A stretch of 64,000 nucleotides of DNA from Thermodesulfovibrio yellowstonii DSM 11347. Its GTDB lineage: Bacteria > Nitrospirota > Thermodesulfovibrionia > Thermodesulfovibrionales > Thermodesulfovibrionaceae. This document shows positions 45,250 through 60,774 of this stretch, piece by piece. The first letter of the stretch is position 1; the number at the start of each line of letters is the position of its first letter. A model generated the notes under the pieces. The model saw only the letters and a list, made by a program, of their open reading frames with translations, ran no database searches and was not told where the DNA came from. A program made the position numbers and the translations under genes. The stretch lies in assembly GCF_000020985.1 (NCBI RefSeq), contig NC_011296.1:1044001-1108000 (forward strand). The letters run 5' to 3'.

Positions 45250-46608
45250 TTAAAAAATTAATAACAGATTTGGGAAAAGTCCCAAAAAAATTAACAATAA
45301 AGCTCCTGATAATGCCATGCTGTTATTCAGAGGATGATTATAAATATCTATAACTAAAGAATCTTTATAAAGATAAAAAACTGGTCTTAAATAGTAAAAA
45401 GCGGAAAATATGCTCATTAGTAATGCAAAAAAAACTAATGAACCGTATCCATAAGAAAGAAGATTTTTAAAAAGATTAAATTTTACAATAAAACCTGCGG
45501 TAGGAGGTACTCCTGTAAGAGAAAACATTATCACTATAATGCAGAAAGAAAGAAGAGGATTTTTTCTTCCCACTCCTAAATAATTCTGAATACTTTCACC
45601 ATTTTTTATGTTCATAATAAAAGCAAAAGCGCTGAGATTCATAAAAACATATACAATCAAATAGGGGATCAGTGATATTAGAAGTTCTTTCTCTGGAAGT
45701 AAAAATGCCATAAACATATAACCAGCATGAGCAATTGAGGAATACGCAAGCATTCTTTTTAAATTATTCTGCCTTAAAGCAAGAACATTACCAACTAACA
45801 TTGAAAGAGCTGATATGATAACTATCAAATCTTGAATGTTAAGTTTTAAATTAATTGAAAGAAAAATATTAATTAAAGCTCCAAAAACTGCTACTTTAGG
45901 TGCTGTTGATAAAAATGCTGTTACAGCAGTGGGTGCTCCTTGATATACATCTGGTGCCCATGCATGGAAAGGTGCAAGAGACAGTTTAAAGGCAAATGCA
46001 GAGATTAAAAAAACAACACCCAATAGGATATTTAAATTCTCTGTCTTCAATAATTTAAAAGTTTCATAAGATGTGCTTCCTGTTTGAGCATAAAAGAAAA
46101 CAATTGAACCAAGAAGAATAATTGAAGACAGAGTTCCAAGAATAAAATATTTCATACCAGCCTCAATACTTAGACTTTCCTTTCTGTAAAAGCCTGCAAG
46201 AATATAAAGAGATAGGGAAAAAGTCTCAAGAGCAAGATAAAGAATAAGAAGATCATTAGCAACTATCATTAGATTCATTCCAAATAGTGATAAAAGAAGC
46301 AGAAAAACATACTCTACCGATTTACTACTTTTTAATTTAAGGTCACTGTAGGATAATCCAATGATAAAAACTCCTATAAACAAGACTAAAATCCTTAAGG
46401 TCTGTCTGTACAAGTCAATTTTTATTAATTCCGAAGTAAATTCCTTTTGTCCAAAATTAAATACCGATAATATTATAGCTGTAAGTATGCTTAAAAAACT
46501 CAAAATATAGGTTGTTCTATAATTTCTACTGATAAATCCATAAAAAAAGGAAATTATTGCTAAGATTAGCAGGCTTATTTCTGGTATCAAAACCTTGTAC
46601 TGAATCAT
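45250..46608 (-). CDS. nuoN: NADH-quinone oxidoreductase subunit N
   Basis: This 452-residue protein has about 14 membrane helices and antiporter-family motifs: YFILGTLSSIILLGSIVFFY, APFHAWAPDVYQGAPTAVTAFLSTAPK and RMLAYSSIAHAGYM. It is a proton-channel subunit of complex I. It overlaps nuoM at its start (ATGA). It is the last membrane subunit before the chemoreceptor gene. Intact. Confidence 0.92.
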   Translation of the reverse strand: MIQYKVLIPEISLLILAIISFFYGFISRNYRTTYILSFLSILTAIILSVFNFGQKEFTSELIKIDLYRQTLRILVLFIGVFIIGLSYSDLKLKSSKSVEYVFLLLLSLFGMNLMIVANDLLILYLALETFSLSLYILAGFYRKESLSIEAGMKYFILGTLSSIILLGSIVFFYAQTGSTSYETFKLLKTENLNILLGVVFLISAFAFKLSLAPFHAWAPDVYQGAPTAVTAFLSTAPKVAVFGALINIFLSINLKLNIQDLIVIISALSMLVGNVLALRQNNLKRMLAYSSIAHAGYMFMAFLLPEKELLISLIPYLIVYVFMNLSAFAFIMNIKNGESIQNYLGVGRKNPLLSFCIIVIMFSLTGVPPTAGFIVKFNLFKNLLSYGYGSLVFFALLMSIFSAFYYLRPVFYLYKDSLVIDIYNHPLNNSMALSGALLLIFLGLFPNLLLIF

Positions 46609-48044
46609 CCCTTACCTCCAAAGCTTACGATTTCATTTACTCCAGAAAGCACATAATCTGGATTTAATCCGAGGTAGATGGATATAAGTAGAAGTATTGC
46701 CAAAAAAAATAATTCCCAGGAGATTACATCCCTTACATAGGTAGAAAGCTCTGCTCCTGGCTTTCTAAGATATACTCTATAAAAGAACCAGGATAGATAA
46801 ACTACTCCCAGAGCAACACCGAATACACCAATAAAACCAAGAAATAAATTTTCCCTAAATATACCACTAAGGAGTAATAACTCTCCATTAAAGTAATTAA
46901 GTCCGGGAAATCCACCCATTGCCATGATTAATGAAAAAGTGAAAAAAGTTAAAGCCGGAACCCTTTTTGAAAGAGCTCCGAATTTTTCCAAATCAAAACT
47001 TTTTGTCTCTCTATTTAAAAGTTCAGCTACATAAAAAAGGGCTGCTGCAAGAATGCCATGATTTATACTCTGAAGAAGAACTCCCTGGTATCCCTGTAGA
47101 TTACCCGTAAAAGCTCCTGCTGTAATTATTCCCACATGACTGAGGCTCATATATGCAAAAAGAACTTTAATGTTTTTAGAGTTTAAGGCAAGAAAAGCAG
47201 AGTATACAAAAGAAATAAGGCAAGTAAGAATTATCCACTGATTCACGACTGATAAAATATCATTAAAATAAGGTATTACCCTCAGGATTCCATAAATTCC
47301 CATTTTCCCAAGCACTGCGGACAAGAATATTGTAACTGGCATAGCTGCCTCATAGTAGGCATCCTTTAGCCATCCATGAAGGGGAACTATGGGAATTTTA
47401 ACAAAGAAGGCAAGTATAAAACCAAAAAGGAGCAATAGTTTTGCAGTCTCGCTTATTTTTAAATTTTCAAGAGATGTAAAAGAGAAGCTTCCTCCGTAAT
47501 AGTAAGTAGCTATGATTGCAAGAAATAGAAATATACTAAAACCGAAAGTATATATCAAAAATTTAATAGAAGCCTGAAAGGAATTCTCACCACCCCATCG
47601 CTGAATAAGTAAAACTGCCGGGATTAACATAGCTTCATAGAAAAAAAAGAACTGCAAGAAATTGGTTGACATGAAAAAAGCATTAACTGAGACAGAGAGT
47701 AATAATAAAAGACTCATAAAAGATGAAATTTTATCTTTTATTGTCTTAGTTGCTAAAAGTATAATCGCCAAAGTTATAAAGGTAGTAAGCAAAACAAAGG
47801 GAGAATTTATATGGTCAAAACCAAGAGTAAAATTAAGTTGCCATGCAGATATCCATTCGTAGGAAGTTAAAAATTGAAAACCTTTCTTTGTTCTGTCAAA
47901 ATTAAGGTAATAAATTAGAGCCATTATGAACGACAGCGAGGATGACATTAGGGCAATTAAGTTAACAATTTTTCTGATACCTATTTTCCAAATTAAAAAG
48001 GCACCAAGCAAAGGAAATATTAGTATTAATTCAATTCCTACCAT
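46605..48044 (-). CDS. nuoM: NADH-quinone oxidoreductase subunit M
   Basis: This 479-residue, 14-helix antiporter-like subunit has LGFDHINSPFVLL near the N-terminus, PIVPLHGWLKDAYYEAAMPVTIFLSAVLGKMG in the middle, and LFAYMSLSHVGIITAG. These match NuoM. It is one of four antiporter-like subunits in the locus. It overlaps nuoN and is preceded by the L-like gene after a 9-base gap. Confidence 0.92.
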   Translation of the reverse strand: MVGIELILIFPLLGAFLIWKIGIRKIVNLIALMSSSLSFIMALIYYLNFDRTKKGFQFLTSYEWISAWQLNFTLGFDHINSPFVLLTTFITLAIILLATKTIKDKISSFMSLLLLLSVSVNAFFMSTNFLQFFFFYEAMLIPAVLLIQRWGGENSFQASIKFLIYTFGFSIFLFLAIIATYYYGGSFSFTSLENLKISETAKLLLLFGFILAFFVKIPIVPLHGWLKDAYYEAAMPVTIFLSAVLGKMGIYGILRVIPYFNDILSVVNQWIILTCLISFVYSAFLALNSKNIKVLFAYMSLSHVGIITAGAFTGNLQGYQGVLLQSINHGILAAALFYVAELLNRETKSFDLEKFGALSKRVPALTFFTFSLIMAMGGFPGLNYFNGELLLLSGIFRENLFLGFIGVFGVALGVVYLSWFFYRVYLRKPGAELSTYVRDVISWELFFLAILLLISIYLGLNPDYVLSGVNEIVSFGGKG

Positions 48045-48053
48045 ATTACTCTC

Positions 48054-49823
48054 CTAAAACAAAAGATATATCAAAAGCACAAGCCCTATAAAACTTAACA
48101 TATAAAAAGCATAGTCCTGAATCTTACCAGTATGAAAAATTGCTAATCCATCACTCATAGTCTTTGCTAAATTGGACATAAAAGTAGGTATCCCATTCAT
48201 TTTTCTGTCTTCATAAGCCATAATTTTGGATGAAAGAGGTAAAATTATTCGGTCTATTAACCATCTCCATATTTTGTTTATAAATCCATACTCTGCAGGG
48301 ACAACAGTTTTATTTAGAGATTTTAATGAGTATTTTGCCCCCACCCTATAGAACCAATCTATGTCAAGATTGATATATGATTTTGGCTTAAGTGTCTTAA
48401 GAAACATGGCAAAAACAAGCCCTGTAAAACTGAATATTCCCAATGTGTCAAGAATATGCTGGACTGTATAAGGCTCATAATCTATTGGATATGGCAAGAA
48501 ATTGTAGAAGAACTGTGGGAAAATTCCAATTAATATACATAGTGCTGATGTTGTGAGCATAGCAATCTTCATATTTAAAGGAATCTCTTTGACCTGATAG
48601 TCTGCCTTTTTCTCTGAAAAGAAAGTATAGTATCCCATTTTACAGATAATGCTTATAATAGTTCCGCATGTTGCCACATTGAGCATAATGTAGGCAAAGG
48701 CATTTTTGAGTTCACCTGCGGCAGAGATGATTGGTGATTTTCCAATAAATCCGTTAGTAAGCGGAAATCCAGCAATTGAAAAAGCACCTACAAAAAAGCT
48801 TATGGCAGTAAGTGGTGCATATTTTCCAAAATCACCAAGTTCTGTCATCTTTTCCTTTCCTGTGGCATAAATTACTGCTCCTGCAGACATGAAAAGAAGG
48901 CATTTATAAAGTATGTGGTTGAATGCATGTGAAGCTGAACCATTAAGCCCCAAAGTAATGGTACCGAGTCCTACTCCAGCAACCATATAGCCAACCTGAC
49001 TTACTATGTGGTATGAAAGTAGTCTTCTTAGATTATTCTCAAGTAACGCATATATGACACCATAAACTGCCATAACAGAGCCAAGGTATATCAGTATCTC
49101 TGCTCCAGGAAATCCTCTTATTAAAGCGTAAACTGCTGCTTTGGTAGTAAATGGATTAAGGAAAACACTTCCATAAATTGTTGCAGATGGATAGGCATCT
49201 GGTAGCCACGCATGCAAGGGTGGTACCGCAGCGCAAAGTATAAAGCCAATAAGAGTAAGCCACCAGAAAAGCTCTCCAGAGTAGCTCATAAAGGAGTCAA
49301 ACTGAAAACTTCCTGTTTGAGAGATATAGATCATTATGCCTGCAAAAAGGGAAAGACCACCCGCTACATGAACAAGAATGTATCTGTAGCCTGCCTCTGT
49401 TGCCTCTTTTGTTCTCTGAGACCAGATAAGTAAAACCGCGCAAAAAGACAACATCTCCCAGAAAAGATAGAAGCTTAAAATATCTGCTGCAAAGCTAACG
49501 CCTACTGATGCACCTGTATAGAAAAGTCCAGCCAACTGTTGAATCCAATCATCTATATGATAGCAATAGATTATCCCAATCAAACCAATAAAACTAAATA
49601 TATAGGCAAAAAGAAGGCTCAGTTTGTCCACCCTAACAAGAGGCGATATATCCATACCAAACAAACTCATATAACCATAAAATCCCTGCTCGGCTATTAA
49701 TGTAAGGAAAAAGCCTACTGTAGCGATGAGAACACTGTAGGGTCCTCTCATATTCTTGGGTAATGCTGGCAACAAAAGAGCTCCGAAGATCAGAACCACT
49801 CCCGGATGAATAAAATCAGTCAT
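48054..49823 (-). CDS. Large antiporter-like complex I subunit (NuoL/MrpD-like)
   Basis: This 589-residue polytopic protein has the proton-antiporter core VDKLSLLFAYIFSFIGLIGIIYCY, PPLHAWLPDAYPSATIYGSVFLNPFTTKAAVYAL and RRLLSYHIVSQVGYM. The C-terminal extension (about 480-589) has more helices, as in NuoL with its lateral helix, but the sequence is closer to MrpD/hydrogenase-type antiporters than to standard NuoL. It occupies the L position before nuoM. A 71-residue membrane protein overlaps its start. The exact subunit name needs a phylogeny. Confidence 0.8.
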   Translation of the reverse strand: MTDFIHPGVVLIFGALLLPALPKNMRGPYSVLIATVGFFLTLIAEQGFYGYMSLFGMDISPLVRVDKLSLLFAYIFSFIGLIGIIYCYHIDDWIQQLAGLFYTGASVGVSFAADILSFYLFWEMLSFCAVLLIWSQRTKEATEAGYRYILVHVAGGLSLFAGIMIYISQTGSFQFDSFMSYSGELFWWLTLIGFILCAAVPPLHAWLPDAYPSATIYGSVFLNPFTTKAAVYALIRGFPGAEILIYLGSVMAVYGVIYALLENNLRRLLSYHIVSQVGYMVAGVGLGTITLGLNGSASHAFNHILYKCLLFMSAGAVIYATGKEKMTELGDFGKYAPLTAISFFVGAFSIAGFPLTNGFIGKSPIISAAGELKNAFAYIMLNVATCGTIISIICKMGYYTFFSEKKADYQVKEIPLNMKIAMLTTSALCILIGIFPQFFYNFLPYPIDYEPYTVQHILDTLGIFSFTGLVFAMFLKTLKPKSYINLDIDWFYRVGAKYSLKSLNKTVVPAEYGFINKIWRWLIDRIILPLSSKIMAYEDRKMNGIPTFMSNLAKTMSDGLAIFHTGKIQDYAFYMLSFIGLVLLIYLLF

Positions 49824-50031
49824 AGTAGTCCTCCTTCTTTGTTACTACTTTACTTAATGACTTAGCAACAATGATGATAAAGAGAGTCCCTAAAAGACCT
49901 ACCAATGCACCAAAGGCAGGAAGTTCTTCAAATTCAAAATAGCCGTGTCCAAGATGCATCACCTTTAGAAATAATACCTCTAAAATAACCACAACAAGAC
50001 ATGCAATATAGAGAGCTTTTTTATAATTCAT
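49816..50031 (-). CDS. Small two-helix membrane protein of the complex I locus
   Basis: This 71-residue protein has two hydrophobic helices (KALYIACLVVVILEVLFLKV and ALVGLLGTLFIIIVAKSL) with a conserved-looking GYFEFEELPAFGA between them and an acidic tail KKEDYYD. It is translationally coupled on both sides (overlaps of 4 and 8 bases) between the two large antiporter-like genes, so it is probably a real complex subunit. It is not one of the canonical Nuo subunits. I do not recognise its function. Confidence 0.8.
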   Translation of the reverse strand: MNYKKALYIACLVVVILEVLFLKVMHLGHGYFEFEELPAFGALVGLLGTLFIIIVAKSLSKVVTKKEDYYD

Positions 50032-51494
50032 TGCATCACTCTCCTTATAATTTCCATGAGAAAATCTGGATATACTCCAAGAATAATCGTAAATAAAGCA
50101 GTAATGAGCAAAGGTATGGCACAGAAGTAGTTTTCCTTAACATTTTGCCATCTGTTTTCCTGTAATGGTTTTCTAAAGAAAGCTTTATAGGAAATCGGAA
50201 GAAAATAGACTGCATTAAGAAATGAACTGGCAATAAAAATTCCAAGAAGTTCGGGTCTGCCTATCTGCAAAGCTCCCATCGCAAGATTATATTTGCTTAT
50301 AAAGCCTGCAAAAAGAGGTATTCCTATCATGCTCAAAGTAGCAAGAAAAAAGGAAAACATGGTAATTGGCATAACCTTACCTATTCCATCAAGTTCGCTT
50401 ATTCTCTTTACATGAGTTGATACATAAACAGAGCCTGCCACAAAGAACATGGTTATTTTAGAGAAAGCATGCATACTTATATGAATAAGTCCTCCCATTA
50501 TTCCTAAAGGCGAAAACATGGCAACTCCGATAATTATGTATGAAAGATTTGCCACTGTTGAAAAAGCAAGTCTTGCTTTGAAATCATCTCTTGTAAGAGC
50601 AATAAGTGAGCCCATTATTATAGTAAAGCCTGTGAGGAAAAATATTAAATCCTGCATTCCGATTGCCTTTATCGTTGCTTCTCCATAGATATTAAGCAAA
50701 ACTCTTGAAACAGTGAATACACCTGCTTTAACAACAGCAACAGCGTGAAGCAATGCACTAACAGGAGTAGGAGCTACCATTGCTGCAGGCAGCCAACTAT
50801 GAAGAGGCATCACAGCAGATTTATTAAACCCATAGATGAAAAGTATAAGCAATATTTGTAGAATAAGTTTATTTTCTTCAACGATTTCAGGCGCAAAGAT
50901 TCCACCTTTTCTAAAATCAAGTGTTCCTGTAAGAATATAAGTGATAACTATGGCAGCAAATAGGAAAATTTTCGCTGTACCTAAGAGATACACAATATAC
51001 TGTCTACCACCCTCAAGTCCTTCTCTGTCTTCGTGATGGGCTACAAGAGGATAGGTTACAATAGTTAATGCTTCATAAAAGATAAACATTGTAAATAGAT
51101 TTGCAGCAAAGGCAATACCTATTGCAGAACTTAGAGAAAGGGCAAAACAGGTAAAATATCTTGTCTGAGCATGCTCTCTAAGAGTTCGCATATAGCCGAT
51201 TGAGTAAAAAGTTGTTAAAATCCATAGGAATGAAGCGCCGAAGGCAAAAAGTAAACCCAATCCATCAACCCTGAAGGAAAGCTCTATTCCAGGTAAAATT
51301 GTAGCAATTTTTAATCCTATAGTTTCCCCTCTTAAAAAAGGAGGAATAAGCATACAGACAAAGGAAAACTTTAAAACTCCTGCTATTACAGATGTGGCTT
51401 CTCTCAGGTTTGGATTCCTCTCTCCAATTAGAACAATTATTACAGCTCCTATAGCAGATACTAATATAGCTAAAAGCGGTAGTAGCTCTATCAT
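50028..51494 (-). CDS. Antiporter-like subunit, MrpD/NuoM type (extra pump)
   Basis: This 488-residue, 14-helix protein has FRVDGLGLLFAFGASFLWILTTFYSIGYM, a core SAVMPLHSWLPAAMVAPTPVSALLHAVAVVKAGVF, and FKARLAFSTVANLSYIIIG. The AVMPLHSWLPAAMVAPTPVSALLHAV motif is the family proton-path signature. It lies directly after nuoK, where nuoL is expected, but three more antiporter-like genes follow. With L-like, M and N this gives four, one more than standard complex I. Overlap with the 71-residue gene indicates coupled translation. Confidence 0.85.
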   Translation of the reverse strand: MIELLPLLAILVSAIGAVIIVLIGERNPNLREATSVIAGVLKFSFVCMLIPPFLRGETIGLKIATILPGIELSFRVDGLGLLFAFGASFLWILTTFYSIGYMRTLREHAQTRYFTCFALSLSSAIGIAFAANLFTMFIFYEALTIVTYPLVAHHEDREGLEGGRQYIVYLLGTAKIFLFAAIVITYILTGTLDFRKGGIFAPEIVEENKLILQILLILFIYGFNKSAVMPLHSWLPAAMVAPTPVSALLHAVAVVKAGVFTVSRVLLNIYGEATIKAIGMQDLIFFLTGFTIIMGSLIALTRDDFKARLAFSTVANLSYIIIGVAMFSPLGIMGGLIHISMHAFSKITMFFVAGSVYVSTHVKRISELDGIGKVMPITMFSFFLATLSMIGIPLFAGFISKYNLAMGALQIGRPELLGIFIASSFLNAVYFLPISYKAFFRKPLQENRWQNVKENYFCAIPLLITALFTIILGVYPDFLMEIIRRVMQ

Positions 51495-51497
51495 TCT

Positions 51498-51803
51498 TTA
51501 CTCCTCTTTAAGTTCTCTTATTTCTTCTGTGTCCACACTTTTTTTCAGATTAAAGTGAGCGATAAGGAGAGAAAGTCCTACAGCAACAGAACCTGCAGCA
51601 ACAGCTATTGTAAATATTGCCAGCACTTGTCCTCTAATGTCATTCATGTAGTGAGAGAGTGCAACCAAGGCAAGATTAACTCCTGCAAGCATCACTTCAA
51701 GCGATACGAAAACAATTATTAGATTTCTGTTTATAAGGAGATTGATCAATCCCATACTAAAAATTAATCCAGCAAGTATGAGATAAGCTTCAAGAGGTAT
51801 CAT
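51498..51803 (-). CDS. nuoK: NADH-quinone oxidoreductase subunit K
   Basis: This 101-residue, three-helix protein has the NuoK pattern FVSLEVMLAGVNLALVALSHYM, with the glutamate essential for proton transfer, and a helix 3 with FTIAVAAGSVAVGLSLLIAHF. It overlaps nuoJ by 14 bases. The length is typical. Confidence 0.94.
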   Translation of the reverse strand: MIPLEAYLILAGLIFSMGLINLLINRNLIIVFVSLEVMLAGVNLALVALSHYMNDIRGQVLAIFTIAVAAGSVAVGLSLLIAHFNLKKSVDTEEIRELKEE

Positions 51804-52305
51804 CTTTTCTCCTCCATGCTAATACCGAGACCGCAATCATCGGAATGAGTAAAATAACTCCAAGAATGAGCACAGCCAGAGAATATTCATTAAAAAGCAT
51901 TGCACCGATGGCTTTTGTGTTACCCACATCATGAACGTATTTTATTGTATATTTTCCACTGTATTCAGCTTTAATAGATGAAAAAACAGCTAATAGCGTA
52001 GCAGTTATAGAAAGTCCAATAAGTAATCTTCCTTCAAGTATTGATGTATATCTTTTATGCTTTGGAAGTTGCCTCGCTCCAAGTAAAAACAAGGTAAAAA
52101 GAAACATAACCAGTATAGCACCTGCATAAACAATAACCTGAACCATAGCTAAAAATTCTGCATTAAGAAACAAGTATATAACTGCCACATGAAGAAAAAG
52201 AAGCAAAAGCCAGAGCACTGCATGGACAGGATTTTTTCTTGTAAGTGACATTATGGAAATGCCTAAAGTAGCAAGACAAAAATATGCAAATATAAAATAT
52301 ATCAT
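51790..52305 (-). CDS. nuoJ: NADH-quinone oxidoreductase subunit J
   Basis: This 171-residue, five-helix membrane protein has NPVHAVLWLLLLFLHVAVIYLFLNAEFLAMVQVIVYAGAILVMFLFTL, the NuoJ core including the pi-bulge helix. It overlaps nuoH at its start by 4 bases and nuoK by 14. Intact. Confidence 0.94.
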   Translation of the reverse strand: MIYFIFAYFCLATLGISIMSLTRKNPVHAVLWLLLLFLHVAVIYLFLNAEFLAMVQVIVYAGAILVMFLFTLFLLGARQLPKHKRYTSILEGRLLIGLSITATLLAVFSSIKAEYSGKYTIKYVHDVGNTKAIGAMLFNEYSLAVLILGVILLIPMIAVSVLAWRRKDDTS

Positions 52306-53297
52306 AATGCAAACCTCTTGAATATAGCGATTATTATAATATTCAAAATTCCCGCAGGAATTAGCACTTTCCAGCCAATGTTTAACAGCTGGTCAAACCT
52401 GTATCTTGGAAATGTTGCTCTAACCCAGATGTATAGGAATATGAAGGCATACACCTTTATAGCAAACCAGATTATTCCTGGAACTTTATCTAAGAATGGA
52501 AGTATATCAGTAATGAATTTTGGAATTGTCCATCCACCAAGGAAACAGAGGGCACATAGAGAAGCCATAATGTACATGGCAACATACTCAGCAAGGAAGA
52601 ATAGAGCATATCTAAAGGCACTGTATTCCGTAAGATATCCTGCTACAAGCTCTGTCTCTGCCTCTGGTAAGTCAAAGGGTGCACGGTTAGTCTCTGCAAA
52701 GGCAGCAATGACGAAGACAACAAAACCAATTATCTGCGGAATTGCATAGACTCCTAAGGCTGTATTGTGTTGGGCTATAACTATATCTCTTAAATTGAGG
52801 GAGCCTGCGGCAAGAACAACTCCAGCAAGGCTTAGTCCAAGAGCTATCTCATAGGAAAGAACCTGACTTGCCGAACGAAGTCCACCAAGGAAGGAGTACT
52901 TGCTATTCGATGACCATCCAGCAAGTATTATTCCGTAAACAGAGACTGAAGCAGAGGCTAATATAAAAAGTAAGCCCACATTTAAATCGGCAAGGATAAA
53001 GTTAGAAGTAAAAGGGATAACTGTAAGATTAATCATTGTGAAGATTAAAACAATAAGGGGTGCAATTTGGAATATAAACTTTTCAGCATTTATAGGAACT
53101 ATGTCCTCTTTAAAGAATATTTTTATGAAGTCGGCAATTGGCTGAAGCAGTCCATGAGGTCCTACTTCCATAGGTCCCATTCTTGCCTGTGCTCTGCCGA
53201 TTATCTTTCTTTCTGCATAGGTTGTGTAAGCAACATGGGTAAGAACTATTCCAAAGACCACTGTTGTTTTAATTACCATTATGAGAAGCTCAATCAT
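52302..53297 (-). CDS. nuoH: NADH-quinone oxidoreductase subunit H
   Basis: This 331-residue, eight-helix protein has the NuoH hallmarks [59 protein letters not shown] and the late [20 protein letters not shown]. It forms the quinone-entry chamber with NuoD and NuoB. The overlap with nuoC is 4 bases and with nuoJ 4 bases. Confidence 0.96.
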
Positions 53298-53899
53298 TTA
53301 TTCTCCTCCACTGAAGAACTTTCAATAATCTCTCTAAAGCCTCTCCAAAGCTCTTTACCCTTAAGGGGATAATCTTTCCTTAGTGGATATCCATTCCAAT
53401 CCTCAGGCATAAGTATTCTTCTAAGGTCTGGATGCCCAATAAATCTTATTCCGAACATGTCAAAGCATTCTCTTTCATGCCAGTTTGCACCTTCCCATAA
53501 ATCTGTAACTGAATCTAATTCTGGAGTCTCTTCGTTAACCTTTGCTCTAACTCTTATATGAAGCCTTCTCCAAATGCTATAGAGATTGTAGACTATCTCA
53601 AACCTTGGTTTTTCAGGAGAATAATCAACACCGCATAGGTCTTGAAGATGATTGAATCCCTGTTGATTTTTTAAATATTTTAAAATCTCTTTAATTTTAT
53701 TTGACTTTACAATTACAGAAACCTGTCCTCTGAACTCTTTTATTTCGATTACTTCCTCTGGAAATTGCTCTTTCAACTTATATGCAATCTTAAGAGATTC
53801 CTCGGTCGCTCTCGCTCCCTCGGAATGACACGAAGAAAAAGTGCTTGGCTCAGATACTAAGGGCTCTTCCTCTAAAACTCTCTCTATTTCCTGTGCCAT
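53294..53899 (-). CDS. nuoC: NADH-quinone oxidoreductase subunit C with in-frame repeat
   Basis: This 201-residue protein has the NuoC core ([72 protein letters not shown]). The N-terminal segment of about 35 residues includes [13 protein letters not shown], which is a dispersed palindromic repeat (53794-53830) read in frame. Usual NuoC is 150-170 residues, so the extension fits an insertion. It is not fused to NuoD. It overlaps nuoA and nuoH. Confidence 0.93.
53794..53830. repeat. Dispersed palindromic repeat within nuoC
   Basis: On the minus strand, TGTCATTCCGAGGGAGCGAG and its arm CGACCGAGGAATCTC. It matches the copies in cobN, at 8044 and at 12312. Here it is translated as about 12 codons near the NuoC N-terminus. 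The orientation relative to the gene is opposite to that in cobN. Confidence 0.85.
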
Positions 53900-54264
53900 G
53901 TGAGTGCTCCCATAAAGATTTCATAGATATATCCAATAAAAATCAGCAAGATAAATATAATCATCATCCAAAATCCCTCAAGGGATATGGCGTCAAAGGC
54001 AACTGCCCAAGGATAGAGAAAAATGACTTCCACATCAAAGACCACAAAGAGAATGGCAAGAAGGAAAAAGCCAATATAAAACCTCTCCTTTGGTTCACCA
54101 CTTGGTGGGTTTCCAGATTCATAGGCAATAAACTTGATAGGATTAAATTTCCTTGGAGCGACAATCTTATTAACAATAAGTCCTCCTAAGCCAAAGACCG
54201 TGGCAAATATCATGGCAATTAGAACAGGTAGATATTTGTAAGGTATGTATGAACCTGGCTCCAT
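53884..54264 (-). CDS. nuoA: NADH-quinone oxidoreductase subunit A
   Basis: This 126-residue, three-helix protein has the NuoA motif [49 protein letters not shown], with the conserved ESG and the DVE glutamate. nuoA normally opens the operon; here it follows nuoI, which is a rearranged order. It overlaps nuoC by 16 bases. Confidence 0.95.
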
Positions 54265-54827
54265 TATTGACTTTCCTCCCTTCCAATGATTGGATTGGGC
54301 TGTCTTTTACCAACGGGAAGTCTCTCTCTACCAATTCCAGGCAAATGCCAGAATTTATTCAGATATTCCTTTCTCTCATACTGTCCAATAAATTCATCCC
54401 AGTTAATAAGAAGTCTATCTCTGTTAAAGTAGTTTTCCTCTCTTGTGTAAGAGGCATACTCAAAATACTCAGTAAGAACAATTGCATTTACAGGACAGAC
54501 TTCTTCGCAGTATCCGCAGAAGATACATCTTAGTGCATCTATCTCATACTTCGTTAAAACTCTTGCTCCTGTTTCAGGGTTTATTGAATAGTCAATGTAT
54601 ATGCACTGGCTTGGGCATACCTGAGCACACTTTGTACAGGCAACACAACGCTCCTTCCCTGTTTCAGGATCACGAACAAAGGCATGCCTTCCCCTGAAAC
54701 CATCTTCAAGAGGTCTTTTCTGTTTTGGATATCTTATTGTTACAGGTGTTGTGAAAATTGTCTTGAAAGTAATTAATAATCCCTTAATTAGGTCAATGAA
54801 GAGTATCTTTTTCAGTAAATTGTTCAT
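54264..54827 (-). CDS. nuoI: NADH-quinone oxidoreductase subunit I
   Basis: This 187-residue protein has two 4Fe-4S motifs, CVACTKCAQVCPSQCI and CIFCGYCEEVCPVNAI, and the usual FRGRHAFVRDPETGKERC segment. It carries electrons from the N-module side to NuoB. The gene abuts nuoA (shared base 54264) and overlaps nuoD by 4. With no NuoEFG, the electron source to these clusters is open. Confidence 0.95.
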   Translation of the reverse strand: MNNLLKKILFIDLIKGLLITFKTIFTTPVTIRYPKQKRPLEDGFRGRHAFVRDPETGKERCVACTKCAQVCPSQCIYIDYSINPETGARVLTKYEIDALRCIFCGYCEEVCPVNAIVLTEYFEYASYTREENYFNRDRLLINWDEFIGQYERKEYLNKFWHLPGIGRERLPVGKRQPNPIIGREESQ

Positions 54828-56029
54828 CGGTCAGCCTCTCCCATAACTATGTCCAGAGTTCCAATTATTGCTATTACATCTGCAAGAAGATGTCCCTCAC
54901 AAAGCTTTGGAATTGCAGATATGTGAATAAATGAAGGCGCTCTAACTCTCATTCTGTAAGGTCTTCCTGAACCGTCACTCACTATATAAAAGCCAAGCTC
55001 ACCTTTCGGTGCTTCTATGGCTGAATAGATTTCTCCTTTGGGCATTATTTCCTGTTTTTCCTCTGAAAATGCAATAAATCCATTCCAGAGAGAATCCCCT
55101 GGTTCAATCTTTCTTTTTGCCTGATGGGGCAAATCAATATCAGGAGATTTATCTGATAAAATTTTTCCTTCTGGCATCTTTTCAATACATTGTTTTACAA
55201 TCAGTACAGACTGTCTCATTTCCCTTATTCTGCATAAATACCTATCATAAGTATCCCCTTTTTCTCCAAGAGGTACTTCAAAATCAATTTCGCTGTATGC
55301 ATCATATGGTATTTGTTTTCTTATATCGTAGTAAACTCCAGAACCTCTCAAAGCAGGACCTGTAAGTCCTAATAGAACTGCATCCTCTGGTGCGATGACT
55401 CCAACCCCTCGAGTTCTCGCAATCCAGATACGGTTTTCTGTAAGAAGTGTTTCATATTCATCAACTCTGATGAGCATTAAATCCATAAACTTATAAATCT
55501 CATCAAGAACATGCTCTTTTATATCAACCCTTACCCCTCCAATTCTTGGATAGCTAACCGTAAGTCGGGCACCACATATTTTTTCAAAAAACTGCAATAT
55601 CTGCTCTCTCTCTCTGAATGCATAAAGAAACACGGTCATTGCACCGATGTCTAAGGCATGGGTAGCAAGCCAGAGAAGATGACTACTTAATCTGGTCATT
55701 TCAGATACCATTGTTCTTATAAATTTTGCCCGTGGTGGTGGTTCTATTCCCATAAGTCTCTCAACGGCAAGACAGTAACCAATATTGTTGGTCATACTTG
55801 AGATGTAATCAAGCCTGTCTGTAAGAGTCATTGCACCTGGATAGGTCTTACTTTCAGAGAGTTTTTCCACACCTCTATGTAAATAACCAACATCTGGCTT
55901 TATATTGATTACCCTTTCACCCTCAAACTCACAGAGAAGTTTCAGCACCCCATGAGTAGCAGGATGATGTGGTCCCATCTGAAGAACAAAGGTTGTGTCA
56001 CTTACTTTTTCTATTTCAGTCTCCCCCAT
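54824..56029 (-). CDS. nuoD: NADH-quinone oxidoreductase subunit D
   Basis: This 401-residue protein has [20 protein letters not shown] (quinone-site histidines), [12 protein letters not shown], and [14 protein letters not shown], with the standard NuoD end. It lacks the paired N- and C-terminal cysteine motifs that bind NiFe in hydrogenases, so this is a quinone-type complex and not an energy-conserving hydrogenase. It overlaps nuoB by 19 bases. Confidence 0.96.
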
Positions 56030-56535
56030 CTTCCTTCTTCCCTCATAATTTTTTCTTTCAATTTAAGCACACCATACATCAATGCTTCAGGTCTTGGTGG
56101 ACAACCAGGAACATAGACATCTACAGGTAAAAACTGGTCAGCACCTTGAACAGTGCTGTAGGTATTAAATATTCCACCTGTGCATGCACAACTTCCCATT
56201 GCTATGACATACTTTGGTTCTGGCATCTGGTCATAAACCCTTTTAACAATAGGTGCCATTTTGTATGTAACTGTTCCAGCTATGATTATTACATCTGCCT
56301 GACGTGGTGAGGCTCTAAAGAGTATTCCAAAACGGTCAAGGTCTAAATGGGATGCGCCTGCTGCCATCATCTCGATGGCGCAGCAGGCAAGACCAAAAGT
56401 GAGGGGCCAAAGAGAGTTTGACCTACCCCAGTTTACGACTTTGTCAAGAGTAGTAATTATGACATTGCTACCCTTGATTATCTTTGTTCCTTCTTCTACC
56501 TCAATAAGCTGTTTATCATTAGTAGAGGGAAGCAT
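56011..56535 (-). CDS. nuoB: NADH-quinone oxidoreductase subunit B
   Basis: This 174-residue protein has the N2 cluster ligands: ACCAIEMMA (Cys51-Cys52), GSCACTGG (Cys116) and [10 protein letters not shown] (Cys145). It hands electrons to quinone at the NuoD interface. It begins inside the last codons of the ferredoxin-like gene at 56519-57025 (17-base overlap), which ties that gene to the complex. Confidence 0.96.
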
Positions 56536-57025
56536 AGGTATCCTTCACAAACCTCTCTCTCTTGAGTTTTGAAGCCTCATCAGCAGAGACAAACTTCAAT
56601 GCCTTTGTTGTGCACTTTGTAACACAAGCAGGCTTCAAACCCTGGTCTACCCTGTCCTTACAGTAATCACACTTTACAACTTTGCCAGTCTCAGGATTCC
56701 ACTGAGGTACTCCCCATGGGCAAGCCGTAATGCAAGATTTACAGCCAACGCAAAGAGACTGCTCAACAAAAACTATTCCATCCTTTGAACGCTTCTGCAT
56801 TGCACCTGTGGGACAGGCTTTTACACACCAGGGGTCTTCACAGTGAAAACAGGGCATAAAGACAAATCTTTGTCTTGGAAGTCCTCCGATTAGTTTTATA
56901 TCTGTTTCAATTATTCTACAAAGTCTCGGTCCTACGGGAAGTTCATTTTTTGTTTTACAGTGCACCTCACAGGCATAACAACCTATGCAACGGTCATGGT
57001 CTTGATATATATAGTAGATGCTCAT
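56519..57025 (-). CDS. Four-cluster ferredoxin-like electron-transfer subunit
   Basis: This 168-residue protein has four 4Fe-4S motifs: [37 protein letters not shown], and [21 protein letters not shown]. It belongs to the DmsB/PsrB/HycB-type family that pairs with molybdopterin subunits. It has no signal sequence, so it acts in the cytoplasm. It lies 12 bases after the Mo oxidoreductase gene and overlaps nuoB, so it could pass electrons between the Mo enzyme and complex I. Confidence 0.93.
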
Positions 57026-57037
57026 ATCTGTCCTCCC

Positions 57038-59125
57038 TTAAGCCTTCTTCACTCTTACAAAGTTTTCAAAAAGCGCACCTGTGTGGCTTCCATGTGCCAT
57101 TTTGTCAAAAGCTCCGCTAAGAAGTCTACCTTCATTTAGTCCTTTACCGAAGGAACGGGTCTTCCAGGGCACTTCATTCTCAAATCCTCTATACATAAAC
57201 ACAGCCTCTGGGTGAATAAACGGAGTAACTTTAGCTCTAATTTTCCCAGAAAAATCTCCAGAAGATACCTCTACCCAGTCACCATTCTTTATTCCAAGTT
57301 TTGCTGCAGCTTTATCGTTTATCCAGAGTTCGTTTTCAGGAACAATCTCATTGAGATATCTGTTGTTATGGGTCTGCACATGGGTGTGCACTGCCATTCT
57401 TCCAAAGACAAGTCTGAACTCGCCCTCTTCAATGTTAGGCTTTGCAGGTGTTTGATGTTCATAGAAGAATGGAACTTCTCTTTCAGCCATCTTGCTTGAG
57501 AGAATTTCTACTTTACCTGAAGGAGTCTTGAATTTGAGCTCATCTCTTGAATACATTTTAGCATCTTTACAGAGAGCAACCTGTCCAGATTTATCGAAGT
57601 CCTCAATCTTAACTCCTGTTCCTTCAAGCTGATAATTCCAAAGATCTTCAATGGTTTCAAAGGGCATGTACTGTCCAACACCATAGGCATATAGAAGTCC
57701 CTTTGTTATCTCCCATTTACCCTTTGTATCATAGATTGGCTTAATTGCCTTTCTTCTCATTATGAATGCAGGCTTTGCACCTCTCTGAAGCCCTATCATG
57801 TCATCTCTTTCAAGATAGGTTGACTCTGGCAATACAACGTCGGCATACCAAGCCGTTGATGAATAGTTGGTGTCTATTGCCACTAACAGGTCAAGTCCAT
57901 CAAGGACTTCTTTAATATCTTTTAGGGTAATTCCTGCAAAGGGATCGTAACGAACTACAAAGAGAGCCTTCACAGGATAGGGCTCGCCCTTTTTAATTGC
58001 TCTGTAAAGATGGAGAATGTGTCCTGCTCCATCGTAGAGAAATCCTTTACCTGCCTCAGCCTCAACTCTTTTTTCCTCAGGTGCAGGAATTTTTTCAAGT
58101 AGGCTGTTTAACCCTTTTGCTCCCACTTCCTTTGGTGTCTTTGCAAGAATCAAACCACCCTTCTGCTCTATGCTACCAAGTAGTGCATTAAGAATAATTA
58201 CAGAACGGGCAAAATAGAAGGCATCCATATACCTTGCAGAAAACCAACCGGGATAGAGTATTACTCTTGGTTTTGCAGCACTCAAAGCCTTTGCTAAGTT
58301 AACTATTTCATAGGCAGGAATTCCTGTTTCCTTTTCAGCCCACTCAGGAGTGCAGTTTTTTACAAAGTTTTCAAGTTCTACAGTTCCATCAAAGAATTTA
58401 TCAACAAAGTCTTTGTCGTAAAGATTTTCTTTTAAAATTACATGAATTAAAGCAAGATTGAAGGCATAGTCAGTGCCTGGTCTTATCTGATAGAACCTTG
58501 TTGCCTTTGTTGCAGTCTTTGATACTCTCACATCTAAATATGTGAGATCTGCTCCGTTTTCAAGAGCCTTAACAATATTGTTAACCTCTCTAACACCTAA
58601 GGCTTCAATGGCATTTCTGCCATAGAATACCATGTGTTTAGTATTGGCAAAGTCATATCCTACCTCCGGTCTACCGTAGCCAAGCAGAGTTTGATAGGCA
58701 AGGTCAACATTTTTTCTGCAGAAGTCGTCATGACTAAAGTAATTGGGAGAACCCATTCCTCTTACAATCAATCTCTGCATTTCTCCGAAAAGACCAGCTC
58801 CTCTGTCTAAAAGGGCTACGGTTCTTTTACCATACTTTGCCTGTATATCCTTGACTTTGTCTGCCACGTATTTGAAGGCCTCTTCCCAGCTTACCCTTTT
58901 AAACTGGCCCGAGCCTCTTTCGCCAGTTCTAATCATTGGATACTGAAGCCTTTCGGAGTCATAAAGAAGGGCAATTCCAGCAGAGCCCCTGGCACAGAGG
59001 CTTCCCTCCATGCCAGGAACGTAAGGATTCCCCTCTATCCATTTAACTCTACCGTCTTCTACTTCAACCCGAATGGGGCATCTTACGGAGCACATTCCAC
59101 AGTTGCTGAATACTGAGTTCTTCAT
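57038..59125 (-). CDS. Molybdopterin oxidoreductase (PhsA/PsrA-like), cytoplasmic
   Basis: This 695-residue Mo-bisMGD enzyme has an N-terminal 4Fe-4S site (Cys9, Cys12, Cys16 in SNCGMCSVRCP, and Cys44 in SLCARGSAG). A probable Mo ligand is Cys136 in SHDDFCRKN. Segments GADLTYLDVRVSKTATKA, and LPESTYLERDDMIGLQRGA, place it near thiosulfate/polysulfide reductases or related enzymes. It lacks a Tat signal, so it is cytoplasmic, unlike most PhsA/PsrA. It sits between a TauE/SafE transporter and the ferredoxin subunit and complex I, so the reaction may involve a sulfur compound or act as an electron donor to complex I. The substrate is not provable here; a formate dehydrogenase is an alternative. 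Confidence 0.85.
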   Translation of the reverse strand: MKNSVFSNCGMCSVRCPIRVEVEDGRVKWIEGNPYVPGMEGSLCARGSAGIALLYDSERLQYPMIRTGERGSGQFKRVSWEEAFKYVADKVKDIQAKYGKRTVALLDRGAGLFGEMQRLIVRGMGSPNYFSHDDFCRKNVDLAYQTLLGYGRPEVGYDFANTKHMVFYGRNAIEALGVREVNNIVKALENGADLTYLDVRVSKTATKATRFYQIRPGTDYAFNLALIHVILKENLYDKDFVDKFFDGTVELENFVKNCTPEWAEKETGIPAYEIVNLAKALSAAKPRVILYPGWFSARYMDAFYFARSVIILNALLGSIEQKGGLILAKTPKEVGAKGLNSLLEKIPAPEEKRVEAEAGKGFLYDGAGHILHLYRAIKKGEPYPVKALFVVRYDPFAGITLKDIKEVLDGLDLLVAIDTNYSSTAWYADVVLPESTYLERDDMIGLQRGAKPAFIMRRKAIKPIYDTKGKWEITKGLLYAYGVGQYMPFETIEDLWNYQLEGTGVKIEDFDKSGQVALCKDAKMYSRDELKFKTPSGKVEILSSKMAEREVPFFYEHQTPAKPNIEEGEFRLVFGRMAVHTHVQTHNNRYLNEIVPENELWINDKAAAKLGIKNGDWVEVSSGDFSGKIRAKVTPFIHPEAVFMYRGFENEVPWKTRSFGKGLNEGRLLSGAFDKMAHGSHTGALFENFVRVKKA

Positions 59126-59137
59126 GTTAAACCCCTT

Positions 59138-59527
59138 TTAAAATACGCCAAGCAATTGTAAGGCTAATATTAAGAGACCGACGCAAGCAACCCTTTTTAC
59201 CATTACAGGATTGAGTTTCTTTGCAATCTTAGGTCCTATATAACCACCAAGAATTGCCGCAGGAAACATTATTAAGAAGAATATTAAGTCAAAGTTTCCA
59301 AAGCCATAATGTCTAAACGTTCCCATAAGGGTATTGAAGAATATGGCAAGCAAAGAGCTACCCACGATAACATACATGGGAAGTCTTAAACCAACTGCCA
59401 TGAGAGGAACCATAAATGGCCCACCACCAAAGCCAAACATAGATGATGCAATTGCTATAAGAAATGCACCTGGAATACCTATTGCAAGATTTACTTTAAA
59501 TTCCTGTCCCCAAAATTCTATTTTCAT
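59138..59527 (-). CDS. TauE/SafE-type transporter, second half
   Basis: This 129-residue membrane protein with about four helices has the TSUP (TauE/SafE, DUF81) repeat motif GFGGGPFMVPLMAVGLRLPMYVIVGSS. Full TSUP transporters have two such halves (about 250 residues); this gene holds only one and the upstream gene holds the other. The start is 2 bases after the preceding stop, so the halves are translated together. TSUP proteins export or import sulfite, sulfonates or other sulfur compounds. Confidence 0.85.
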   Translation of the reverse strand: MKIEFWGQEFKVNLAIGIPGAFLIAIASSMFGFGGGPFMVPLMAVGLRLPMYVIVGSSLLAIFFNTLMGTFRHYGFGNFDLIFFLIMFPAAILGGYIGPKIAKKLNPVMVKRVACVGLLILALQLLGVF

Positions 59528-59529
59528 AG

Positions 59530-60774
59530 TTATTTACCTCCTTCTGCCTTTTTCTTTGCTTCTTCTTCTGCTCTCTTTCTAAACTCTTTAAGAATTGCCT
59601 GTTCTTTCTTGTTTTTCTCTAAGTATCTTGGAGTTGTCTGCCAGAACATAAGAAGTGAAAGTATTATAAGAACCCATCCAAAAAGGAATTTATACTGGTC
59701 AAGGGTTATAAGCTCCGTCAGTTTTGGACCAATAAATCCTCCGGCAAGCATGGCAAGCCCGAGAGTAACTCCAAGCTTCCAGTTGATAAATTTAATTTTT
59801 GAGTAGTTGTAAATTCCTGTGCCTTGGGAGAAAAGAACTGTTGGCATGACTGTTCCTGCTACAACTGTATGAGGAAGTCCAAACATTACAAGTATCGGGT
59901 TAAGAATAAATCCACCACCAGCACCCATCAAAACTCCAAAAGTTGTAATTGCCGCAGTAAGAAGGAATGGCCATATTACATTAACAGTCCTACCAGCATT
60001 TGGTAAATATACACTGGGAAATGTAACTGAGTTTTCAACTACAACCGGTTCACTCTTTATATCCTTGTCAACCTTTGCAACGACAAAATATTTTCCAGGA
60101 GCAGTGTTTGCTGGAAGTTCAATTGTAGCCTTAAATGTGCCATCTTCTGCTATTTTTAAGTTTGAAGAAAATACGTTACCAACGCTACGAAATCTTGCTT
60201 TAAGTAGCTGCATAGACCTGCGCTTATTCTCTTTTTCATCCATTGGTTCAAGCTTTGTTCCTCTTGAACCAATTATGCTTGCCCACAAAGACGTCTGATA
60301 CCTATCAATTTTCAACTTTGCAGGATAACCGTAAACAGCATCGGCACCGGCATTTTTTATAACTTCAGAAACACTCCACTTTCCACCCTTTGCCTTAGCA
60401 TCCTCTAAAACGGGCTTATATTTTTCAGGAACAATTAATCTGTAAAAGGCGGGCATATCATCAGTCATATAAAATATGTATGGCCTCTTACCAGTTTTGG
60501 GATCTGGGTCTGCGTCAAGCCTTGCAGCTCTTACAGTTTTTTCAGCCCAGACTTCAATGTATACATCTTTGCCAGCTGGTACTTTACCAGTGATTGTAAG
60601 TTTACCTCCGCCTGAAAGATTTGTTTTATCAACGCTTACTGTAACAGTCTCTGCTGACTGTGCTTCCTTCGGAGCTTCAACGGCTTTCTGTTCAGCAGGC
60701 TTCTGAGCAAAACCAGTAGAGACAAAAACCGTTAAAACAAGAATTACTGTAAAAAGAGTTAAAAATCGCTTCAT
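59530..60774 (-). CDS. TauE/SafE-type transporter, first half with periplasmic domain
   Basis: This 414-residue protein has a signal peptide (about 1-23, ending GFAQ) and an extracytoplasmic region of about 230 residues rich in beta strands (LSGGGKLTITGKVPAGKDVYIEVWAEKT). A TSUP half then follows with VIWPFLLTAAITTFGVLMGAGGGFILNPILVMFGLPHTVVAGT, and a charged C-terminal tail comes last. The extracellular domain is an unusual addition. It starts 18 bases after usp and ends 2 before the other half. The substrate is probably a sulfur compound. Confidence 0.85.
   Translation of the reverse strand: MKRFLTLFTVILVLTVFVSTGFAQKPAEQKAVEAPKEAQSAETVTVSVDKTNLSGGGKLTITGKVPAGKDVYIEVWAEKTVRAARLDADPDPKTGKRPYIFYMTDDMPAFYRLIVPEKYKPVLEDAKAKGGKWSVSEVIKNAGADAVYGYPAKLKIDRYQTSLWASIIGSRGTKLEPMDEKENKRRSMQLLKARFRSVGNVFSSNLKIAEDGTFKATIELPANTAPGKYFVVAKVDKDIKSEPVVVENSVTFPSVYLPNAGRTVNVIWPFLLTAAITTFGVLMGAGGGFILNPILVMFGLPHTVVAGTVMPTVLFSQGTGIYNYSKIKFINWKLGVTLGLAMLAGGFIGPKLTELITLDQYKFLFGWVLIILSLLMFWQTTPRYLEKNKKEQAILKEFRKRAEEEAKKKAEGGK

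What the first reader, a model, noticed from the sequence alone, without database searches (positions are those of the whole stretch)
45250..51494. Four antiporter-like subunits (one more than normal)
After nuoK there is a MrpD-like 488-residue protein, a 589-residue L-like protein, NuoM and NuoN. Complexes with an extra pump subunit (2M complexes) have been described, including in Nitrospirae, and may move more protons per electron pair. This set, with an MrpD-like and an L-like member, may be a further variant.
Basis: partly seen in the sequence, partly recalled or inferred. Interest (0 to 1): 0.6.

Follow-up and report, generated by a model that had tools for sequence, protein, structure and literature searches.

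The report
Respiratory pump with one altered subunit
A heat-loving sulfate reducer carries a respiratory complex I relative with four pump-like subunits instead of three, but one of the four has lost a lysine that the usual pumps need, and a small unnamed membrane protein travels with it, so the supposed gain in pumped protons becomes something that can be tested.

Summary
In detail: four antiporter-like subunits follow nuoK in one gene cluster, and all ten such genes of the genome fall into three clusters. It is not a 2M complex but the published "green" layout, in which two MrpD-like proteins (here D1, D2) replace NuoL. The input end is a Psr/Phs-like molybdoenzyme plus ferredoxin subunit without NuoEFG, as reported for Thermodesulfovibrio.

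Three things were missed. (1) A 71-aa two-helix protein lies between D1 and D2; it sits there in 124 of 127 distinct D1-D2 pairs, without a convincing Pfam, NCBIfam or PDB match. (2) D2 lacks the TM7 lysine (132 of 134 distinct; Cys197 here), while D1, M and N keep it. The second NuoM of 2M complexes lacks it too, in 13 of 13 clusters scored. No arm scored has more than three TM7-lysine subunits. (3) NuoK Glu72 is lost in 14 of 14 distinct Psr-linked copies.

So "more protons per electron pair" gets no support from the sequence; the extra subunit is an altered one. Chadwick 2018 could not be read, so priority on (2) is unknown.

The parts
57038..59125 (-). Psr/Phs-like molybdopterin oxidoreductase, 695 aa, starts directly with a cysteine-rich Fe-S motif; no Tat-type N-terminus seen by eye
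   Evidence: (PhsA NF012032 527 bits, under cut-off 694; best PDB chain 2vpw_A, 369 bits)
56519..57025 (-). DmsB/PsrB-like ferredoxin subunit with four cysteine motifs
56011..56535 (-). NuoB with the CC, CAC and PGCPPRP cysteine stretches
54824..56029 (-). NuoD, over the NuoD model cut-off (TIGR01962)
54264..54827 (-). NuoI, two CxxCxxCxxxCP motifs
53884..54264 (-). NuoA
53294..53899 (-). NuoC
52302..53297 (-). NuoH
51790..52305 (-). NuoJ
51498..51803 (-). NuoK; Glu36 kept, Glu72 (E. coli numbering) replaced by Ser
50028..51494 (-). D1, first MrpD-like subunit; E141, K225, H250, K256, H342, K346, K401 present
49816..50031 (-). small two-helix membrane protein, 71 aa, ends KKEDYYD; highly conserved Lys57 in helix 2
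48054..49823 (-). D2, second MrpD-like subunit carrying the lateral helix HL (model 490-564) and TM16; TM7 Lys replaced by Cys197
46605..48044 (-). NuoM; E137, K216, K247, E388
45250..46608 (-). NuoN; E128, K208, TM8 Lys238, K376

Best explanation
The cluster encodes a single membrane-bound complex I relative. Electrons enter (or leave) through a cytoplasmic Psr/Phs-like molybdoenzyme and its ferredoxin subunit in place of the NADH module, run over NuoI and NuoB to a quinone at NuoD/NuoH, and drive a membrane arm of H, A, J, K, N, M, D2, the small protein and D1. NuoL's two jobs are shared out: D1 keeps a complete proton-pump core and D2 supplies the lateral helix. D2 has lost the TM7 lysine, so I think it is not a fourth ordinary proton pump but a modified relay, spacer or differently gated channel, and that the stoichiometry stays near the canonical one. 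Shown: gene content, families, order, residues, conservation. Inferred: one physical complex, electron route, pumping, D2's role.
For: Identical Psr-to-NuoN gene order in 14 loci and nearly so in two more, which are all 16 fetched loci with the Psr gene (three genomes were fetched twice). D1 and D2 form separate, fully supported clades apart from NuoL; M and N group with E. coli NuoM and NuoN. No MrpE or MrpG match in the genome. TM7 Lys, distinct sequences: D2 lacks it in 132 of 134, D1 has it in 120 of 120, NuoN in 98 of 98, NuoL in 22 of 22, NuoM in 108 of 113. Of 73 loci with just D1, D2, M and N, 71 hold exactly three and two have a cut D1 that could not be scored. The same loss in the extra NuoM of 2M complexes: 4 of 4 Nitrospirota clusters (two have identical second NuoM) and 9 of 9 Chloroflexota clusters (two nearly identical), on one branch of the NuoM tree, so separate from D2. 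Mutating this Lys in E. coli N, M or L causes loss of function (PMC3046159 passage).
Against: D2 is not a dead relic: TM5 Glu is kept in 134, TM8 Lys in 133, TM11 Lys in 131 and TM12 Lys in 135 of 135 rows, so it could pump in another way. NuoL K229A did not differ from unmutated NuoL in one growth-complementation test (PMC4938563 passages), so losing this Lys need not silence a subunit. Two D2 keep Lys (L141, L184, both standalone Mrp-type clusters). Two clusters hold only two TM7 lysines: L188, which lacks D1, and L227. In the single-NuoM Chloroflexota cluster L225, NuoN has Arg there. No biochemistry exists here for any of this.
Confidence: 0.6

Rival explanations
1. Four working pumps: D2 pumps with TM8 Lys in place of TM7 Lys, so the complex moves about five protons per two electrons, as proposed for 2M complexes.
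For: TM5 Glu, TM8 Lys, TM11 Lys and TM12 Lys of D2 are nearly invariant. The proposal of a higher stoichiometry for 2M complexes is cited in PMC6606698 (passage).
Against: The conserved Lys whose mutation abolishes function in E. coli L, M and N is the one lost, in D2 and separately in the extra NuoM of 2M complexes.
Confidence: 0.25
2. The small protein repairs D2 in trans: its conserved helix-2 Lys (or its C-terminal tail) takes the place of the missing TM7 Lys at the D1-D2 interface.
For: The small gene lies between D1 and D2 in 124 of 127 distinct pairs; Lys57 is kept in 120 and Tyr70 in 123 of 124 distinct sequences.
Against: Lys57 is near the end of the predicted second helix (40-63) and may only mark the membrane face. 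L027 and L165 lack the small gene and both still have Asn in D2. The 13 2M clusters lost the Lys and have no match to the small protein.
Confidence: 0.12
3. Two complexes: a Psr-linked Nuo core plus a separate Mrp-like antiporter made of D1, the small protein and D2.
For: The same three genes occur in standalone clusters elsewhere, with a further MrpD and, by eye, MrpB/C/E/F/G-like small genes.
Against: No MrpE or MrpG match in this genome; without D1 and D2 the Nuo core would have no NuoL-position subunit; D1-D2 lie between nuoK and nuoM in 16 of 16 Psr loci.
Confidence: 0.05

Closest known systems
Green complex I of rhizobia (Degli Esposti and Martinez-Romero 2016, not held; described in PMC9040806 passages)
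   Same: Two MrpD-like proteins in place of NuoL; order K-D1-small gene-D2-M-N; D2 about 44% identical
   Different: The S. meliloti copy has NuoEFG; here a Psr-like module sits in their place and NuoK Glu72 is lost
Nuo complex linked to Psr/Psh genes in Thermodesulfovibrio sp. N1 (Frank 2016, PMC5165239)
   Same: The same cluster type in the same genus; no NuoEFG (passages)
   Different: The passages list NuoL; they do not mention four antiporter-like subunits, the small gene or the residue changes
2M complex I (Chadwick 2018, not held)
   Same: Four antiporter-like subunits; the surplus one lacks the TM7 Lys
   Different: Surplus is a second NuoM and NuoL has an HL insertion of about 26 residues; here no NuoL and one NuoM
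Complex_I_3 of Ca. Manganitrophaceae (PMC9040806 passages)
   Same: Two MrpD-like subunits; L128, which has this layout, also has the small gene
   Different: Two NuoM as well, and a longer D2 tail
Mrp-type clusters with D'-D1-small-D2
   Same: Same three-gene cassette; D2 mostly without TM7 Lys
   Different: Mrp-like small genes instead of Nuo; D2 tail variable, 77-147 residues in the 22 of 31 with the motif

Membership tests
[quoted passage not shown]
   D1 and D2 outside the NuoL clade; definition from PMC9040806 passage
Green complex I | One NuoM and one NuoN | tested here: met
Green complex I | NADH module NuoEFG beside it, as in S. meliloti (may not be defining) | tested here: not met
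   S. meliloti copy has it. The one NuoF-type Fe-S domain found in the genome lies elsewhere
2M complex I | Second NuoM | tested here: not met
   only one of the four falls in the NuoM clade
2M complex I | NuoL with an HL insertion of about 26 residues | tested here: not met
   No NuoL; D2's tail aligns to canonical NuoL without that insertion, 2M NuoL has it. The D2 model superposition hints at a longer reach but rests on a low-confidence linker
Canonical complex I (NDH-1) | NuoL and NuoEFG | tested here: not met
Mrp antiporter | MrpE, MrpG partner subunits | tested here: not met
   (the same searches ring in 6 of 14 control genomes each)
Proton pump of more than 4 H+ per 2e- | Measured stoichiometry | not testable with these tools
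   needs purified enzyme

The most novel reading that the evidence does not exclude
A general rule: whenever a complex I relative gained an antiporter-like subunit, one subunit gave up its TM7 lysine, twice independently (D2 of green-type arms, second NuoM of 2M arms), so that no arm carries more than three. Surplus subunits would then be gears or spacers with altered gating, not extra proton pumps, and D2 works together with a so far unnamed two-helix subunit.
Probability: 0.45. Interest if true: 0.8.

Novelty: new variant of a known kind. Interest (0 to 1): 0.62.

Why it matters
Complex I is the reference machine for long-range coupling of electron transfer to proton pumping. If evolution can add an antiporter-like subunit but only without the key lysine, then three lysine-bearing units may be a hard limit of the mechanism, and arms that carry a natural lysine-less unit (D2, second NuoM) are ready-made tests of coupling models. 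It also bears on energy budgets for nitrite and manganese oxidisers that assume extra protons per cycle. The Psr-linked version would tie sulfur-compound redox chemistry directly to complex-I-type pumping.

Tried and rejected
HL as a ruler for the number of subunits under it. The D2 tail behind the DWFYR motif is very even in complex-I-linked D2 (100-107 residues in the 76 of 88 rows with the motif, some genomes twice; window 101), and 130 and 138 in the two-NuoM clusters L165 and L128, 168 in L188. Behind FDWLY/VDELY it is 69-82 in 19 single-M NuoL (L212 had no motif match) and 103-112 in the four 2M NuoL. If the two motifs are equated, D2 is about 29 longer than E. coli NuoL, and the VIA superposition agrees (model 509 on E. 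coli 562). But profile alignment equates a different stretch and shows no 26-residue gap, and the model's linker 481-487 has pLDDT under 50. I left it open: D1 may sit beyond D2 at the tip, or between D2 and M.

Formate dehydrogenase as the input module: the residues behind the presumed metal-ligand Cys (HDDFCRKN) do not resemble the formate dehydrogenase pattern as I recall it, and the best structure match is the enzyme 2vpw, which I recall as the T. thermophilus Psr enzyme. Substrate and direction stay open.

Reading the NCBIfam names "Na+/H+ antiporter subunit D" as evidence for sodium transport: rejected, the names are by similarity.

Search for a prior report of the TM7-lysine loss: (listings) and passages of PMC9040806, PMC6606698 and PMC12361115 gave nothing; the two key papers are not held, so no claim of priority is made. 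Foldseek searches of 'pdb' or 'viral' were not run. First counts of NuoM, NuoN, NuoL and NuoK held some genes fetched twice; the distinct counts are.
Full report
What is there. On the minus strand from 59125 down to 45250 lie fifteen genes in one run: a Psr/Phs-like molybdoenzyme, a DmsB/PsrB-like ferredoxin subunit, NuoB, D, I, A, C, H, J, K, then D1, a small gene, D2, NuoM and NuoN. The genome is one contig of 2,003,803 bases; the closest named relatives include Thermodesulfovibrio (90% and 80% identity in D2), and the size fits T. yellowstonii DSM 11347 as I recall it. PF00361 finds ten antiporter-like genes in all, in three clusters: this one, a NuoL-M-N cluster and a Hyf-type cluster. No MrpE or MrpG match was found, in line with the published statement that only strain N1 among the studied Thermodesulfovibrio has an Mnh antiporter (PMC5165239 passages).

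Which families. In a tree of 174 antiporter-like proteins (quick IQ-TREE, SH-aLRT only) D1 falls in a clade of 41 and D2 in a clade of 42, each with support 100 and each holding both complex-I-linked and standalone Mrp-type members; NuoM (36 rows) and NuoN (33 rows) of the window sit in clades with the E. coli proteins, and four NuoL form their own clade. Several long branches make deep joins unsure, so I use only these clades. The layout with two MrpD-like proteins in place of NuoL is the published green complex I (PMC9040806 passages); S. meliloti pSymA shows it with NuoEFG.

How widespread. D2's family passes its cut-off in 53 of 295 Nitrospirota genomes searched. In the gene-order census the Psr-type order is found exactly in 14 loci and nearly in two (L180 is cut, L183 has a split NuoB), which are all 16 fetched loci with the Psr gene; three of these genomes were fetched twice through two collections (L039/L157, L040/L162, L094/L124), as their contig lengths show. 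The window itself is a further copy.

The small gene. Between D1 and D2 lies a 71-aa frame ending in KKEDYYD, overlapping both neighbours by a few bases. S. meliloti has an unnamed 84-aa gene in the same place, ending RREDYYD. A profile of this family finds it in 124 of 127 distinct D1-D2 pairs; of the three misses, L095 has it inside an overlapping longer frame, and L027 and L165 have D1 and D2 abutting. Lys57 is kept in 120 and Tyr70 in 123 of 124 distinct sequences. No hit was seen in fetched loci without D2, and none in the 13 2M clusters, while two positive controls rang. Against Pfam and NCBIfam only three single-member matches at E 0.004 to 0.009 to unrelated families appeared among 26 members, and the profile's best PDB match has E 0.46. 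The AlphaFold model (mean pLDDT 73.9) gives two helices, 3-27 and 40-63.

The lost lysine. Aligned on E. coli NuoL Lys229, D1 has Lys225, NuoM Lys216, NuoN Lys208, but D2 has Cys197. Over distinct sequences (first count): D2 has Asn in 120, Cys in 7, Ser in 3, Asp and Thr in 1 each, Lys in 2 of 134; D1 Lys in 120 of 120; NuoN 98 of 98; NuoL 22 of 22; NuoM 108 of 113. The NuoM without Lys are the second NuoM of the four Nitrospirota 2M clusters (two identical) and of L128 and L188, which carry D2 as well. I then took Chloroflexota as an outside test: of 41 genomes searched, with a capped list of matches, I fetched 20 stretches, nine of them with two adjacent NuoM; in 9 of 9 the second NuoM has Leu while L, first M and N have Lys (L219 and L220 are nearly identical, and L224 also lacks the TM8 Lys in its second NuoM). 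The 16 Lys-less NuoM rows of a 73-row tree form one clade (support 100; one change), so together with D2 there are two independent losses. Per locus, 75 loci (72 distinct D2) hold D1, D2, M and N: 71 have exactly three TM7 lysines, two have a cut D1 that could not be scored, L128 has three of five, and L047 carries two D1-D2 cassettes with four lysines among six subunits, three of them in its Nuo arm. Results that depart from exactly three: L188 lacks D1 and has two, L227 has two of three, and in L225 NuoN has Arg. None scored has four in one arm. In E. coli, mutating this Lys in N, M or L caused loss of function (PMC3046159 passage); in a growth test in B. subtilis NuoL K229A did not differ from unmutated NuoL (PMC4938563 passages), so another role for D2 remains possible. 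Its other charges are nearly invariant.

NuoK. Glu36 is kept in 97 of 97 distinct NuoK. Glu72 is Ser, Ala or Gly in 14 of 14 distinct Psr-linked NuoK and Ala in L134, whose fetched stretch stops before the place of a Psr gene; 81 of the other 82 keep Glu (first count). That Glu72 belongs to the buried charge axis is recalled, not tested.

Mechanism. Electron route and quinone binding are inferred: NuoB has its conserved cysteine stretches, NuoI its two cluster motifs, NuoD the HPATHG, LDY and DIGAMT stretches that I recall as lining the quinone site. The Psr-type subunit matches 2vpw best; the direction and the sulfur compound are unknown, as Frank and co-workers also left open. I read D1 as the full pump core and D2 as the HL carrier with altered core, so a stoichiometry near the canonical one is the more likely outcome.

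Lateral helix. D2's model (47 sequences, mean pLDDT 84.4) has HL at 490-564 and TM16 at 568-588. Whether HL spans two or three subunits is not settled; the numbers for and against are given under Tried and rejected.

Known versus new. Known: the green layout, 2M complexes, the Psr link in Thermodesulfovibrio. Not found in what I could read: the small gene, the TM7-lysine rule, the NuoK change. The two papers most likely to mention them are not held.

Noticed in passing
window 59138-60774: Two TauE/SafE-type genes (129 and 414 aa) that match opposite halves of the Pfam model lie just upstream of the Psr-like gene; no similar frame was found in the other loci fetched by then.
   Followed up: partly
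L188 (G254, unnamed Nitrospirota): A complex I cluster with K-small gene-D2-M-M-N and no D1, and an unusually long D2 tail of 168 residues.
   Followed up: partly
L227 (G295, Chloroflexota): A cluster with NuoL, only a second-NuoM-type NuoM (Leu at TM7) and NuoN, so only two TM7 lysines.
   Followed up: no
L126, L130, L081, L057: Standalone Mrp-type clusters with three antiporter-like subunits (D', D1, D2) and the small gene; no full-length MrpA was seen by eye.
   Followed up: partly
L047: Two D1-small-D2 cassettes on one contig, one before and one inside a Nuo cluster.
   Followed up: no
L189, L191: D1-small-D2 with a 748-765 aa D2 followed by a NuoM-like gene, without other Nuo genes labelled in the stretch.
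   Followed up: no
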